A stretch of DNA of 64,000 nucleotides, taken from assembly GCA_026770025.1 (NCBI GenBank), contig JAMXDE010000005.1:3410001-3474000 (forward strand), read 5' to 3'. The DNA comes from Craspedostauros australis (Eukaryota; Bacillariophyta; Bacillariophyceae; Mastogloiales; Achnanthaceae). How positions within the stretch are numbered: the first letter of the stretch is position 1; the number at the start of each line of letters is the position of its first letter. Shown here in pieces: positions 8,820-14,852 of the stretch. The position numbers and the translations under genes are program-made. The notes below the pieces were generated by a model. It saw only the letters and a list, made by a program, of their open reading frames with translations, did no database searches and was not told the origin of the DNA.

Positions 8820-8823
8820 ATAG

Positions 8824-9000
8824 GAGCCCGATCAGTGAGTCGACCTGCACTTTGCAATCATCAGTCTAACTTTTTTCCTGGGATTTACAAACTAAGTACA
8901 TATTCATAATCCTCTTAGTCTCTTTATGTGTATGAAATCCTTTCAGATTGTAGTTAGGTTCATTTTAAGTTTTATGGACCGATGCATGTGTTCATTCTAG
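8824..9000 (+). repeat. Left terminal inverted repeat of the DNA transposon
   Basis: It pairs with 14671-14848. The outer 42 bases are perfect, the middle is diverged, and the inner block at about 8962-8983 matches again. The outermost bases are GAGCCC, preceded by ATAG at 8820-8823. Such long, partly diverged repeats suggest extended transposase-binding ends. Confidence 0.9.
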
Positions 9001-9321
9001 TCGCGTGGATCCAACATCACAAAATTCGTTAGCTTCTGCCGAAGGTTCGATGATGTTCTCACGTATTTATCGTCAGGTGATCAGTCACGGACTTGCTTCC
9101 GAAGGTCTCAGTCGTTTGGTACGCGTTAATTACACGTTAGCATGTGCCACAGGATTCCACATTCTGCTCGTCACAAAACAGATGACACAAAACACATCAC
9201 ACAAAACACATCATCTCCAACATTTCGCAAAATCGCGCCACACTATGGCTCCATTCACAACTTTCCTCGCCAATGCCCTGCACACTCGCCCTTTCGCTCC
9301 ATGCCCGTTCTCGTCACACTT

Positions 9322-9356
<35 letters not shown>

Positions 9357-9378
9357 TGCTGTTGTTGTTGTTGTTGTC
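9322..9378 (+). repeat. GTA then GTT trinucleotide microsatellite
   Basis: About nine GTA units are followed by a short interruption and GTT units. The open frame of the transposase gene extends upstream through this run as a poly-Val stretch, which argues that translation starts after it, at the ATG at 9490. Confidence 0.85.
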
Positions 9379-9489
9379 ACCAGGTGGTTGGCCTTTCATC
9401 GTATGCTCTCCTTCCTCACTTCGTCTCAACCTCTGCAGTTCATCACATCCAACGAGCAAACAGCACTACTCTCCACCAACAACTCCACC

Positions 9490-12400
9490 ATGCCTCTCTC
9501 CACCACCACCAAGGCCCTCTCCAAGGATGCTAACCCCTCCCCCAGTAAGAAACCCCGTTCTGCTCGCCTTGCATCTGCTCCTCCTGCCGACTCCAAGGGA
9601 AACTTGCTGCCTACTGTCGAGCAACTGTTGCCTGACAAGCCGTCCGCTGCGTTGAGGAAGCCGATCACCATCACGCGAGTGATCGATGTGAAGCCGATGC
9701 ATGCAGCGGATGGCATCCTCGTCCCGAACGGTACGCATGCGCACGCTCGCGAGCTGCATGTGTTCGTCCACATCCTTGACAAGGGAGGCGTCTTCGACGA
9801 CTCCCACGTCGAGGTGCGTTCGGAGGGACGAGGTGTCGGCGATGGGACTTCGGTGAGCGTTATCGTGAACGCGCCACCCCTGCCTGCCGCAGCTGACATT
9901 GCACCACCTGTCAAGCCAACTCCACCAGTGAGGCTTCCCCGGCGCTGCAACACTGTAGTTGCCGGGGGGTACGCAGATACCTCAAACGACAGTGACAGCA
10001 CGTATGTTGACGAAAAGGAGGAACAGACACGCGCCGGCAGGGGCAGGAAGGGTGGGAAATTCAGGCATGATCCAGAGGAGGAGAGCTGGAGGCGTGATGC
10101 TATCATTCGTGTGATGGCGGTGCTTGGGTCTAAGCTAGATCCAAAACTGTTGCGGCTCATGCCAAACAAAGGGTTCGTTCTCACAGGCAGGCACGATCGG
10201 ACCATCTGGAGCAACATCAAACAGATGTGGAGTGTCCTATCGTCTGCACTTTGGACTGTCCTGCTCCCAGAGGAGGACGTGCCAACTCGTCAGATGGAAC
10301 AGGTGGTTGCATACGTGCGCGGGAACGTGGAGCTTCCTCCTGCAATGTTGGCGCCCAATCTGTACACCCTGGGTTTGCTCGGAGAAACTACGTCGTCTGT
10401 CACGGTGAGAGCTGCCTTGGCCATGTCCGCGCCCCACACACTGTGTACTGCTGTCTTGGGCAAGCAGGCACATGGACTATCGGAGGAACAGAAGGCGCGC
10501 ATGCTTCCCAAACGCGACACGATCACACGCAGTCAGACAGACACCTTGCGACGCTACTACGACATGATGAGCCACGGTGAAAGCATTCCACTACGAGTTC
10601 TTCAGTACCGTGTGAGTGCCTGCAATCTCTCTGGCGTGGTGTCCTTCCTCATGACAACAACAACATACAAGGCAGGGTTAAGTCACACGGTACAGTATGG
10701 TGGAGTTGCATTTGAAAATGTCCCAGTGTTCGATCGAGGTGGCACGACCATCCAAGAATTATTCGGCATGTACTCGTCCACAACTAACAACCCAGTAGGA
10801 AGGCCTGCGTTCGCTACAATGACCAACCTCCTCACACGCAAAAGCAAGATCAAGACAGGGCTTTCTTCCTTTGAGAGCTATTTCTGGATGGCCACGGAGA
10901 AACTGAAACAGGCAATTTCGCGCCTAGTCGACCTGCTGAAGGCTAAGTATGAAGTGGGGGGCGAGGAGAAAAACGATGCCAATGACAAGACCCACCATGA
11001 CAACAATGAGCCAGATGACGTCATCTCACCACATGTGCGCACAGCAGAGTCCCTCTCGCATGCGCTCGAACTGCTTGTTGTGTTCGTCAAATGGGAATTC
11101 ACCGCGTCGCACATGCAGCATGAGTGTGACGACCCCATGCATTCGGCTGCGTTCGCACTCATCACAGGAAAGGAGAAGAAGAAGGCAACAACCACATCAA
11201 CCAATCAACGCAAGCCACGCACCAACAAGCACAAGCGCAAGAAGAACACCACCATCACAAACAACATTCCAATCATCACAAATGACATTCCTGTGGTCAC
11301 AACAAACGAACAACCGCGTAAAGTATGCAACCGTTGTGGCGCAGCAATGCGATTTGTGAATGATCGTTTTGTCCCATTCGTCGAAATGCTTAAGGACAAC
11401 GAACTCGCAGAACACAAGGACGAGTTGCAATCAATGCTTGTGGCAGCGCCGGGATTCGCTGATGAAATCATTAATTACATGGCTCACAAAGTGCGTGCCA
11501 AAGTTCAATTCGGACAAATCGCTTTTTATCAATCCCAGCTCAACGAAAAGCCTGAAAGAGCCTATGTGGTACTCGACCATAAGCAAAAAATTCTACCGAC
11601 AGGCCAAAGCGAAGCCCAACAAGAATATTGGGGGAAGAAGGGAATGTCACTGCTTGGGGCGATGGTCATCACGTGTCGCAATGACATTTTTACTTATCGG
11701 TTCATCGACATTGTGGTCGGCGGAAGACCGACACAAGACACACTTCAAGTTGGTGGACTGCTGGAGATAGTGCAAAAAAAGGTCAAAGACATTCACCCAT
11801 CCGTGACTGAAATCATCCTACAGAGCGATAATGCATGTTGCTTTGCCAGTCACGAGCACATCGCGCTCATCACATCGGTACTCAACAAGAACCTTGCGAC
11901 ACGAAAAGCAGCTAAAATCATCGCGTGGATCTACACAGAGGCCCAAACCGGTAAGAGCATGCTGGACACCCACTTCGCGTACATCACTCGTGTACTGCGA
12001 AAATACGTGCAAAGTGGACGCGACATCAAGACCGCCCGCCAACTCTACGAAGCACTGAAAGCCGGTAGCATCGCAGGGACAACAACGGTGCTTGTTAACG
12101 CGTCGTCCCTCCAAGGCAACATCACCACGCTTCCAGGCGCACCAAAAAGACGATTCCGAGCGTCTGGACAACAGGTACGTCAAACTCACGAGGTGAAGTA
12201 TGATGATGACCAGGCACGGTTGGTGGCTGCATCTGGTATCACAGAAGACGTTGTGGTCAAGAGCGCTGAATGGGAAGGGTGGATCATCAACGAGTTGGGC
12301 GTCATCGAGGACAGAACAATCACGTCCGACAAGCTGCCGATAACGTCCGAATCGTTCAGGAAGACGGACAAGACGCGAAAACTCGGGCGCACAGCAGCAG

Positions 12401-13017
12401 AGAGCAAGGCGCTGGCGTTCGGCAAAGCCATCGCAGACGGACAACAACATCTACCATCCGATCACACCACAGCGCTACAAGACCAGACCGCAGAAACAGA
12501 ACATCCACCACTTGCAGTGCCAGGCTGGGCGAGCAAAACAACGCGCAAACCGGCAGAACTACCAGACTACATCGCGGACAAGTTGAAGGGCATCAGTGAA
12601 GCGTCCGCGAAGGACCCAAAAAACAGACCGTCCGAACACGAAGCACATGAGCAGTTGATGGACGACAACAGGACCAAAACCGACTGGTACGTACAACTGC
12701 ACGCAAACCCCATGCGCGTGAAAGCTTCGCTGTCGGCGGCGTACAACGCCAAACAACGCAAGGACAAGAAGGAGGCCTCTCTCATCAAGGCAGAAACCAA
12801 CACCAACACCAACCCAACAGCATCTGCAATCGTGGCGACCCACGATGCGCCAGCTGAAACACAGGAGGAACGAAGAGAGGAGGAGTTGCAGAGAGCAGAA
12901 GAGGAACTTGAGAATCAGATGTGGTGTGATGCTGACACACTGAAGGCCAACACAGAAAGTGAGGCTGTGTTGGATGATGAGACGGAAAATTGTGATGGGC
13001 ATGTACTGCCGCGATAA
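9490..13017 (+). CDS. DDE-type transposase of unclassified family (1,175 aa)
   Basis: The frame is open from 9142, but the ATG at 9490 sits in a good context (CCACCATGCC) after a microsatellite and starts a basic, Ser/Lys-rich N-terminus. The central part is mostly helical in character. A Lys-rich linker precedes a CNRCG zinc-knuckle-like pair (about residue 613). The presumed catalytic core then shows VVLDHKQKILP (first Asp), about 80 residues later LQSDNACCF (second Asp), and then YTEAQTGKSMLDTHFA (Glu). That acidic spacing and the GKSxLDxHF signature fit an RNase H-like transposase. The C-terminus (about 840-1175) is charged and rich in Lys/Glu/Ala. The frame is intact, so the element may be active or recently so. 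I do not recognise the family with confidence; Sola-like is a guess supported by the 4-bp target duplication. Confidence 0.8.
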   Translation: MPLSTTTKALSKDANPSPSKKPRSARLASAPPADSKGNLLPTVEQLLPDKPSAALRKPITITRVIDVKPMHAADGILVPNGTHAHARELHVFVHILDKGGVFDDSHVEVRSEGRGVGDGTSVSVIVNAPPLPAAADIAPPVKPTPPVRLPRRCNTVVAGGYADTSNDSDSTYVDEKEEQTRAGRGRKGGKFRHDPEEESWRRDAIIRVMAVLGSKLDPKLLRLMPNKGFVLTGRHDRTIWSNIKQMWSVLSSALWTVLLPEEDVPTRQMEQVVAYVRGNVELPPAMLAPNLYTLGLLGETTSSVTVRAALAMSAPHTLCTAVLGKQAHGLSEEQKARMLPKRDTITRSQTDTLRRYYDMMSHGESIPLRVLQYRVSACNLSGVVSFLMTTTTYKAGLSHTVQYGGVAFENVPVFDRGGTTIQELFGMYSSTTNNPVGRPAFATMTNLLTRKSKIKTGLSSFESYFWMATEKLKQAISRLVDLLKAKYEVGGEEKNDANDKTHHDNNEPDDVISPHVRTAESLSHALELLVVFVKWEFTASHMQHECDDPMHSAAFALITGKEKKKATTTSTNQRKPRTNKHKRKKNTTITNNIPIITNDIPVVTTNEQPRKVCNRCGAAMRFVNDRFVPFVEMLKDNELAEHKDELQSMLVAAPGFADEIINYMAHKVRAKVQFGQIAFYQSQLNEKPERAYVVLDHKQKILPTGQSEAQQEYWGKKGMSLLGAMVITCRNDIFTYRFIDIVVGGRPTQDTLQVGGLLEIVQKKVKDIHPSVTEIILQSDNACCFASHEHIALITSVLNKNLATRKAAKIIAWIYTEAQTGKSMLDTHFAYITRVLRKYVQSGRDIKTARQLYEALKAGSIAGTTTVLVNASSLQGNITTLPGAPKRRFRASGQQVRQTHEVKYDDDQARLVAASGITEDVVVKSAEWEGWIINELGVIEDRTITSDKLPITSESFRKTDKTRKLGRTAAESKALAFGKAIADGQQHLPSDHTTALQDQTAETEHPPLAVPGWASKTTRKPAELPDYIADKLKGISEASAKDPKNRPSEHEAHEQLMDDNRTKTDWYVQLHANPMRVKASLSAAYNAKQRKDKKEASLIKAETNTNTNPTASAIVATHDAPAETQEERREEELQRAEEELENQMWCDADTLKANTESEAVLDDETENCDGHVLPR

Positions 13018-14670
13018 CACTAGTTGTGGAGTTTTGTGGGTGGCAGACCATGCTACTACAACGAGTCTAGAGGCCATCCAAAAAGCACATCCAATATCTG
13101 CTTGTCATGCCATATCTCAACAACACATCGCTTAAAATTAAATCTAAACATTGCGCTCAGACGCCTGGCTATAGGTTAATCAGAATATCGAAGTTAAATG
13201 AGTATTGAAAATATTTTGGAAGTCATGTTGGTTTGCTGTGTTTTGTGTGGTCGATTCGAAAAAATTGTTGATGCCACAATGTTGCCCTCCAATGAGCACA
13301 CATGATCATCATCATCATCCTTGTATTTCGGCAAACTGAGCATATCATTAGCTCCGCATACCCCCCAGCTATCCGATCCATGAAGCATTGCCCCAGATAC
13401 CTGCATTGCACACCCCAAAGTTTCTCTGCACTGAAAACGAGCAATTTCGAAAACCCATTCGCAATCCGGATGTGGTGCGGATGAGGGTCCATATCTCATC
13501 CATACGACCCTTTCATCCCCTCCACATGCCCCTCGTGCATTCCCACACTCCATGGCGACACGCGGATGCATCCATAATGGGCTGGGCATGCATGCCACTG
13601 ATGGCACACCTCTGTATGGTGATGTCATGGCGCATTTTCATGCGCCTGCCAACAACGACCATTCGCCACATATGCTTGGCCGTGGCCTCTTCCAGACAAC
13701 TTCAGCAGGTCGTACTTCGCCACGCCCACATTCGGCCAATTTCTGACACATCTTGTATGGGCGGCTTGGTGATTGGGTGGCTTGATGATGGTGCCCCTCA
13801 CAGCCAAAGCCACATGATGGGAATCCCCACGATCCACCGCCAAAACTTTTGCCCTCCACGTTTGCCTCCGCGCGGACACCTTCCCGGTCGTCCCCGAGCC
13901 TCAAACTTCGTGGGAGCCTTGGTCCTGCCCTTGTGGATGCGCCTTGCCCCTCCATGGGCGCTGGTATGGGCTGTGTATGGAATACACATGCCACATCCAA
14001 CGAGCCCATTTGGCGTCAAAACATGACGTTTGCGCGGGGGCCTGCCGCGGCCCCAAATCAACCGCTATCGCAACCCCCTCTCGCCCACACACCAAGGGTT
14101 GCATGGCGGAGATAGTGGTGCGCTTGGATTTTGGAATGGCCCGCTGCTCGGTGCGGCGCGGTGGATGCCGTTGGATGGCCATTGTGGAGGTTTTTTGTTT
14201 CGCAACACCATTGTCATGCCGTTGTGTCGTGTTTGGCACTCTCAACCAGTTGCACATACTGGGGGTTGCGGCGGTTACCAATAATTGTACCAAATGCACG
14301 AGGAAAGCACGACACAAAACACTTCGAGAGTACCAACCCCACTCAACCATCCCGTAACGACGAAACACAGAGGACGATGTTTCACATCGTGCTGTGATTG
14401 GTGGTTCATGACGCAACCGCTAGTTTGGTGACGTCGATGACGGATTGGGCAAGCCCATGATGGAATGAATTAAAACGCGCACCCACCGCTTCTCCCAAAA
14501 CTCTACAACTAGTGTTATCGTGGACGGACTGTTGGATCGTCTCATCAACACACCTCAAAAAGAGACTAAACAATTCAAAATGGGAACAGCCTTGCTGAAA
14601 CAAAGAACAGCAAAGGGTTAAATTGGATCGATGTAGTCGTAGCCAACAGGCCGAAACCCGAAAGAGATCG
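13018..14670. other. Non-coding right part of the DNA transposon
   Basis: No convincing gene is seen. Between about 13350 and 14280 the sequence is GC-richer, and long open frames of up to about 210 codons exist on both strands. They are rich in Met, His, Trp and Cys and look like composition artefacts. A second spliced gene or a decayed cargo gene cannot be excluded. Confidence 0.5.
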
Positions 14671-14848
14671 AATAATGCACACATCCATCGGTCCATAAAA
14701 CTTAAAATACGACCATCCTCAGAACTGAAATGGATCAGTATATGTTTTAGATCTACGAGGATTATGAATATGGGCTTAGTTTGGAAATCCGAGGAAAAAA
14801 GGTTGTACTGATGATTGCAAAGTGCAGGTCGACTCACTGATCGGGCTC
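14671..14848 (-). repeat. Right terminal inverted repeat of the DNA transposon
   Basis: It is the inverted partner of 8824-9000. It ends in GGGCTC at 14848 and is followed by the ATAG duplication at 14849-14852. Confidence 0.9.
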
Positions 14849-14852
14849 ATAG

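What the first reader, a model, noticed from the sequence alone, without database searches (positions are those of the whole stretch)
8820..14852. Intact-looking 6-kb DNA transposon with 178-bp TIRs and 4-bp target duplication
The inverted ends (8824-9000, 14671-14848) share a perfect 42-base outer block and an inner 22-base block, and ATAG flanks both ends. The single large gene is uninterrupted. A 4-bp duplication with long TIRs fits none of the most common eukaryotic superfamilies; Sola is the nearest known by duplication size. An intact autonomous copy in a diatom would be a good type specimen.
Basis: partly seen in the sequence, partly recalled or inferred. Interest (0 to 1): 0.75.

Follow-up and report, generated by a model that had tools for sequence, protein, structure and literature searches.

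The report
Algal transposon with hairpin-scar record
The stretch is a complete 6-kilobase jumping gene, one of dozens of close relatives in this silica-using alga's genome, which inserts at four-letter sites with TA in the middle and whose damaged copies carry mirror-image scars that seem to record how its enzyme cuts DNA.

Summary
Window 8824-14848 (6025 bp) has 178-bp TIRs (outer 42 bases identical), ATAG on both sides and one open gene (1175 aa from the conserved ATG at 9490). It belongs to a large family in the same genome. Of 42 elements with both ends read, 41 carry an exact 4-bp duplication, all NTAN. Three of 12 insertions tested have unoccupied sites elsewhere. Two pairs of 6-kb copies differ by 2 and 3 bases in unrelated flanks. 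The gene is under purifying selection (dN/dS about 0.22). So it is a real, recently mobile TIR transposon.

New here: six of seven eroded ends read flank, t1t2, inverted duplication, inverted flank, with t taken from the element's other end; the pattern is absent from 64 intact ends. This is what an opened hairpin on the flank would leave if one strand is nicked in the middle of NTAN, 2 nt outside the element, and joined to the other strand exactly at the border: hAT/RAG-like chemistry. Fold and catalytic residues remain inferred (weak models, no profile match). Sola fits by duplication length, TIR and size, but membership could not be tested.

The parts
8820..8823 (.). Left target-site duplication, ATAG
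   Evidence: same 4-bp rule in 41 of 42 resolved elements, the window included
8824..9000 (+). Left terminal inverted repeat, begins GAGCCC
   Evidence: 41 TIR matches listed in the own genome
9321..9377 (.). TAG/TTG microsatellite in the 5' leader, region variable in length
   Evidence: 87 gap columns against L011 in the block from 9274
9490..13017 (+). Putative transposase gene, one exon, 1175 aa (frame open upstream to 9142)
   Evidence: 39 listed matches of 84-100% identity in the own genome, 36 without stop; dN/dS 0.22-0.23 against four other-subfamily copies
11326..11337 (+). CxxC (C613, C616), possible zinc-binding motif ahead of the core
   Evidence: both cysteines invariant in 12 proteins; function inferred
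11557..11994 (+). Putative catalytic core, residues 690-835; candidate acidic residues D696 (11575-11577), D780 (11827-11829), E817 (11938-11940), D826 (11965-11967)
   Evidence: dN/dS 0.05-0.16 in the six window comparisons; D696, E817, D826 in 22 of 22 and D780 in 21 of 22 cores; catalysis inferred
13018..14670 (.). 3' non-coding part of the element
   Evidence: 12 ORFs of at least 80 aa in this part and the right TIR, none open in all 13 copies; no codon pattern in the best one
13009..13036 (+). Left arm of an internal 28-nt inverted repeat, overlapping the stop codon
   Evidence: I4; seen in 13 of 13 aligned copies
14496..14523 (-). Right arm of the internal 28-nt inverted repeat
   Evidence: I4; seen in 13 of 13 aligned copies
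14671..14848 (-). Right terminal inverted repeat, ends GGGCTC
   Evidence: 40 matches listed in the own genome
14849..14852 (.). Right target-site duplication, ATAG

Best explanation
An autonomous-type TIR DNA transposon of a large, recently mobile family. The 1175-aa protein most likely is a DDE/D-type (RNase H-like) transposase that binds the long TIRs. At each end it nicks the strand running into the element 2 nt outside it, in the middle of NTAN, and uses the freed flank 3' end to attack the other strand exactly at the element border. This frees the element with exact 3' ends and leaves a hairpin on the flank, as in hAT and RAG. The element then joins NTAN sites with a 4-nt stagger, and repair gives the duplication. 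Shown here: ends, duplication, target rule, unoccupied sites, near-identical copies at unrelated places, selection on the protein, and the scar pattern at eroded ends. Inferred: that this protein is the transposase, its residues and fold, that the scars come from flank hairpins at failed excisions, and cut-and-paste movement. I hold the transposon reading at about 0.9 or more and the hairpin step at about 0.7.
For: 41 of 42 resolved end pairs have identical 4-bp flanks, all 41 NTAN, all with GAGCCC ends (31 of 32, 10 of 10). Empty sites: for 3 of 12 other insertions the junction is spanned elsewhere, mostly at 90-98% identity; four such sites read align without gap with one copy of the target, two exact and two with one base changed. 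L013/L015 differ at 2 of 6003 and L021/L023 at 3 of 6053 positions, with no similarity in 120 bp of flank and different duplications. dN/dS 0.22-0.23 between subfamilies, 0.08-0.16 in residues 690-835 for the same four pairs. Spacing D696-(83)-D780-(36)-E817 follows the usual DDE order (recalled). Scars: 6 of 7 eroded ends read F'-t1t2-rc(t1t2t3t4)-rc(F'), with t from the other end (TTAA, CTAG, ATAG, and TTAT three times) and arms of 9, 4, 6, 7, 13 and 8 beyond the 6-base centre. At 64 intact ends the centre is absent 62 times and has no arm twice. Three of the six (C12, C41, C25) exclude the opposite stagger; the TTAT ones fit both. Flank hairpins are established for hAT and V(D)J (PMC6900584, passages).
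Against: No sequence match to a transposase family in Pfam, NCBIfam, PHROGs or PDB. AlphaFold models were poor (mean pLDDT 31.7 and 43.1) and Foldseek gave nothing at E<=0.001, so the fold is unproven. One of 42 pairs mismatches (C1:2670856, GTAT/CTAG; the same copy has Asn for D780). One of seven eroded ends (L137) shows no scar; its partner was not identified. No empty site for the window's insertion nor, within the 40 listed hits, for 9 of the 12 others. One GAGCCC end (L092, CTGA) breaks the NTAN rule. C/DxxH, the motif reported for hAT and some others, is absent between D780 and E817 (read), so hairpin chemistry would not mean hAT kinship. The scars could instead come from fold-back synthesis or host ligation at a staggered break.
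Confidence: 0.85

Rival explanations
1. It is a member of the Sola superfamily (4-bp duplications); the mechanism may be as above.
For: 4-bp duplication in 41 of 42 pairs; length and TIR lie inside the ranges reported for Sola (2-9 kb, TIR 11-1124 bp; PMC10741241, passages). Sola-1 and Sola-2 families are listed for the brown alga Ectocarpus (PMC12477816, passages).
Against: No Sola protein could be compared. Dictyostelid Sola2 elements have AWWT duplications (PMC3627910, passages); 6 of the 41 here (ATAT) fit. Sola3 is recalled as TTAA; 2 of 41 here.
Confidence: 0.5
2. A transposon superfamily not yet named, with GAGCCC ends, NTAN duplications, this transposase and flank-hairpin excision.
For: No credible protein match in the libraries and collections on hand. 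The NTAN rule was not met in the listings and passages seen (searches; passages 24-26, 62, 63, 66, 67, 97-99).
Against: Repbase, Dfam and eukaryotic proteomes are not searchable here.
Confidence: 0.2
3. The scars are not hairpin products but fold-back (snap-back) synthesis at a staggered break, as in polymerase-theta repair (recalled).
For: Inverted copies of the flank next to breaks, with short overlaps at the junction (GA at C25, ATCA at C19, ATCAGT at C2; sequences), are expected of it as well.
Against: In C25 (duplication ATAG) the flank stops after AT and is followed by CTAT plus the inverted flank, i.e. by the other strand's own end; the two loop bases come from the opposite strand, which fold-back of the top strand would not give.
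Confidence: 0.25
4. The element moves by copy-out/paste-in (circular intermediate).
For: Near-identical copies in number would also fit replicative movement.
Against: The scars at element borders suggest breaks at donor sites. No tandem or circular junction was sought.
Confidence: 0.1
5. The open gene is cargo and the element is moved in trans by another element's transposase.
For: Catalytic function of the protein is not shown; models are poor.
Against: It is the only gene with a codon pattern found in the 6-kb unit, is under purifying selection, and has a conserved acidic core.
Confidence: 0.08

Closest known systems
Sola superfamily (Sola1, Sola2, Sola3)
   Same: 4-bp duplication, long TIRs, several-kb length (ranges from PMC10741241 passages)
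   Different: Target is NTAN here; dictyostelid Sola2 uses AWWT (PMC3627910).
hAT elements (Hermes, Kat1) and RAG/V(D)J
   Same: Inferred hairpin on the flanking DNA and exact 3' ends of the element (PMC6900584 passages; PMC4763223 passages)
   Different: hAT duplications are 8 bp (recalled); no hAT Pfam match; no C/DxxH motif; nick inferred 2 nt outside the element, against 1 nt recalled for Hermes and 0 for RAG.
piggyBac and Kolobok
   Same: 4-bp duplication; Kolobok termini 5'-RR..YY-3' (PMC9587614) are also met by GA..TC
   Different: Classical TTAA target (2 of 41 here), though KolobokP has 3-5 bp duplications. Kolobok's C/DxxH motif is absent. piggyBac puts the hairpin on the transposon, not the flank. 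No Pfam match.
Tc1/mariner
   Same: TA at the heart of the target
   Different: Duplicates only TA (PMC10741241) and cuts without hairpin; here the outer two bases vary between copies but are duplicated within each.

Membership tests
Sola | 4-bp target-site duplication | tested here: met
   41 of 42 pairs
Sola | TIR 11-1124 bp, element mostly 2-9 kb | tested here: met
   TIR 178 bp, element 6025 bp; ranges from PMC10741241
Sola | Transposase related to Sola transposases by profile search | not testable with these tools
   No Sola sequence or model held; Pfam gave no match
Sola2 (dictyostelid description) | AWWT duplication | tested here: not met
   6 of 41 fit
piggyBac | TTAA duplication | tested here: not met
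   2 of 41 are TTAA
Kolobok | TTAA duplication and C/DxxH motif between second D and last E | tested here: not met
   2 of 41 TTAA; motif absent in residues 781-816 (read); definition from PMC9587614
hAT | C/DxxH motif; Pfam hAT match | tested here: not met
   motif absent; no Pfam match
hAT / RAG type chemistry (works like) | Hairpin formed on the flanking DNA | tested here: inconclusive
   6 of 7 eroded ends carry the predicted scar, absent at 64 intact ends; indirect evidence
Tc1/mariner | TA-only duplication | tested here: not met
   4 bp duplicated in 41 of 42
DDE/D transposases in general | RNase H-like fold with acidic triad | tested here: inconclusive
   Conserved D/D/E order; models pLDDT 31.7 and 43.1, no Foldseek match at E<=0.001
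Academ | Accompanying helicase/XPG nuclease domains (recalled) | tested here: not met
   No such Pfam match in the protein; no second gene found
KDZ | Match to the Pfam KDZ model (its presence in Pfam recalled) | tested here: not met
   Not among the Pfam matches up to E=1, or E=10 for the core

The most novel reading that the evidence does not exclude
A eukaryotic DNA-transposon superfamily not yet named: GAGCCC termini, strict NTAN 4-bp duplications, a transposase outside all profile families on hand, and excision through a flank hairpin whose first nick lies in the middle of the target duplication, so that opened hairpins at failed excisions record the cutting step in the genome.
Probability: 0.2. 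Interest if true: 0.8.

Novelty: new variant of a known kind. Interest (0 to 1): 0.6.

Why it matters
Recently mobile DNA transposons with many intact copies are few, and this one could give a native insertion tool for algae. The scars give base-level predictions of where each strand is cut, testable in one cleavage experiment. If the transposase proves to lie outside Sola, a superfamily would be added; if inside, Sola gains a proposed excision chemistry, for which I saw no report in the searches.

Tried and rejected
Relatives elsewhere: viral contigs scanned with P0001, an alignment and the core, genome contigs twice, phages and plasmids by tblastn: no credible relative; the three plasmid hits have E of 5 to 7. 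Pfam, NCBIfam, PHROGs, PDB: only chance-level hits. Structure: two AlphaFold jobs, both too weak; Foldseek once, nothing. Second gene: 12 ORFs tested, rejected. Empty counterpart of the window's own site: none. At first I read the eroded ends as snap-back synthesis and counted three; on re-checking, a different formula fitted the three, and a search for more ends (86-88, 90-92) gave three further fits and one eroded end without scar. Because of this, novelty went from 'new member' to 'new variant' and interest from 0.5 to 0.6. A pairing of C6:1182210 with C6:1196494 (ATAG against ATAT) was dropped: one search shows two further ends between them, so these are two elements, each with one end unread. 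Papers: the Sola description (10.1093/molbev/msp013) and the 2011 DDE survey are not held; what I say of Sola beyond the cited passages is recalled.
Full report
What is there. Window 8824-14848 is a 6025-bp unit with inverted ends of 177/178 bp (82% identical, 8 gap columns, outer 42 bases perfect), flanked by ATAG at 8820-8823 and 14849-14852. One long gene: frame open from 9142; the ATG kept in 11 of 12 aligned proteins is at 9490, giving 1175 aa. The 3' part has 12 ORFs of at least 80 aa; none is open in all 13 aligned copies. The best is open in 10 of 13 but shows no codon pattern. An internal 28-nt inverted repeat (13009-13036/14496-14523) overlaps the stop codon and is seen in 13 of 13 copies; its role is unknown.

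The family. The window lies in a 74.8-Mb, 90-contig genome. The left TIR listed 41 matches (298 first-look candidates, 40 scored), the right TIR 40 (333 candidates). The protein listed 39 matches at 84-100% identity, 36 without a stop (550 candidates, 39 scored); these are the best-scoring ones, so that share is biased upward. Of 20 loci chosen by TIR alone, 11 hold an open frame over at least 1160 residues; the rest are interrupted or cut by the fetched stretch. Counts are lower bounds.

End points and duplications. Both ends were read for 42 elements: 32 (the window, 12 whole copies, 19 further pairs) and 10 more. In 41 of 42 the two 4-bp flanks are identical, and all 41 have TA in the middle: TTAT 7, ATAT 6, ATAC 6, ATAA 6, ATAG 5, CTAT 4, TTAA 2, TTAG 2, CTAG 1, GTAA 1, CTAA 1. 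The outer bases vary between copies but agree within each, so 4 bp are duplicated and not TA alone. In 21 of these sites no flanking base within 10 bp exceeds 10 of 21. The exception is C1:2670856 (GTAT/CTAG), which also has Asn in place of D780. Not among the 42: C25:705014 (right end not found), six elements with one eroded end (below), and ends whose partner was not read. Single ends: of the 32 stretches (three of them re-fetches), 23 begin GAGCCC and 22 have NTAN beside them (exception L092, CTGA); five of the 23 are partners and others. Six further ends carry GAGCCT, GAGCCA or GACCCA and no palindrome at the border. All 16 GAGCCC ends have NTAN.

Empty sites. Joined flanks of 12 other copies were searched in the genome (40 best candidates listed). 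Three gave matches spanning the junction: L028 once (98%), L015 at eight places of 94-98% plus one of 90% and two of 81%, L025 at thirteen places of 91-96% (one more of 73%). Four of these sites were read and align without gap with one copy of the target: ATAT and TTAT exact, TTAC for TTAT, TCAG for TTAG. At least L015 and L025 thus sit inside repeats. The window's own site has no empty counterpart.

Age and selection. L013 and L015 differ at 2 of 6003 bases, L021 and L023 at 3 of 6053, with no similarity in 120 bp of flank and different duplications. Of the 12 copies aligned to it, the window is nearest to L011 (70 mismatches) and L012 (127). dN/dS against four other-subfamily copies is 0.22-0.23 over the protein and 0.08-0.16 over residues 690-835. 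In those four pairs the synonymous rate is lower in that stretch as well, so recombination between subfamilies or a constraint on the DNA is possible.

The protein. No family matches. D696, E817 and D826 are kept in 22 of 22 cores, D780 in 21 of 22. Spacing D-83-D-36-E and the hydrophobic pattern suggest an RNase H-like DDE core, but both models were poor and Foldseek found nothing. The transposase reading rests on gene content, selection and motif order.

Scars at eroded ends. Seven ends were found that lack roughly the outer 5 to 13 bases of the element (exact numbers are blurred by short overlaps such as GA, ATCA and ATCAGT). In six (C12 L116, C41 L117, C25 L118, C19 L119, C2 L120, C7 L132) the sequence reads: flank F', the first two bases of the duplication, the inverted whole duplication, inverted F', then the element. 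The duplication used for the test was read at the element's other, intact end: TTAA, CTAG, ATAG, TTAT, TTAT, TTAT. The arms of F' are 9, 4, 6, 7, 13 and 8 beyond the 6-base centre. At 64 intact ends, tested with their own duplication from -40 to +20, the centre is absent 62 times and has no arm twice; the eroded stretches searched were somewhat longer. The seventh (L137) has no such pattern, and its partner was not read. The alternative stagger (top strand keeps all four bases) is excluded in C12, C41 and C25 and cannot be told apart in the three TTAT cases; a flush hairpin fits none of the six.

Reading of the scars. The pattern is that of a flank hairpin opened off-centre: the top strand ends after t2, 2 nt outside the element and between T and A of NTAN, and is joined to the bottom strand, which starts exactly at the element border. 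In hAT elements and V(D)J recombination the non-transferred strand is cut first and its flank 3' end attacks the other strand, leaving a hairpin on the flank (PMC6900584, passages; Kat1, PMC4763223, passages); footprints read as opened hairpins are described for Ds (PMC1978519, passages). Here the element stayed behind with one damaged end, so I read these as failed excisions. Fold-back synthesis by host repair remains a rival.

Placement. By duplication length, TIR and size it fits Sola (PMC10741241). NTAN differs from AWWT of dictyostelid Sola2 (PMC3627910) and from TTAA of piggyBac and classical Kolobok (PMC9587614); [quoted passage not shown] Protein membership in Sola could not be tested.

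Host. Silicon-transporter matches are abundant, which fits a diatom, though other siliceous groups also have them (recalled).

Noticed in passing
own genome, many contigs: The silicon-transporter family PF03842 has 88 matches, of which 32 cover at least 483 of 513 profile positions (28 of those without a stop): a very large set of silicon-transporter genes.
   Followed up: no
L116, L117, L118, L119, L120, L132: Eroded transposon ends carry palindromic scars that follow one formula built from the element's own target duplication; used in the main argument.
   Followed up: yes
window 13009-13036 and 14496-14523: Internal 28-nt inverted repeat bracketing the 3' non-coding part, seen in 13 of 13 aligned copies; purpose unknown.
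   Followed up: partly
L058 (C1:2671590-2672370): The only one of 22 cores with Asn at D780 belongs to the only one of 42 resolved copies whose two flanking 4-bp sequences disagree.
   Followed up: no
L100-L103 (C65, C73, C35, C19): Four related element ends share the same flanking sequence next to a variant end (GAGCCA/GACCCA), so an old insertion seems to have been copied along with another repeat.
   Followed up: no
C37:413488 and C37:413592 (L087, L088): Two element ends lie 104 bp apart in the same direction: apparently one copy inserted near the end of another.
   Followed up: no
own genome, e.g. C4:2976908-2991804, C15:1147338-1162530, C32:477661-497182, C45:300899-341614: Pairs of ends roughly 15-41 kb apart still share the same 4-bp duplication, which suggests copies swollen by nested insertions or added cargo.
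   Followed up: no
L017 (C65:232500-240500) and L018 (C31:689400-697400): Two copies near contig ends share the same flank, so one is probably a duplicated or allelic stretch; only the C31 one was counted.
   Followed up: no
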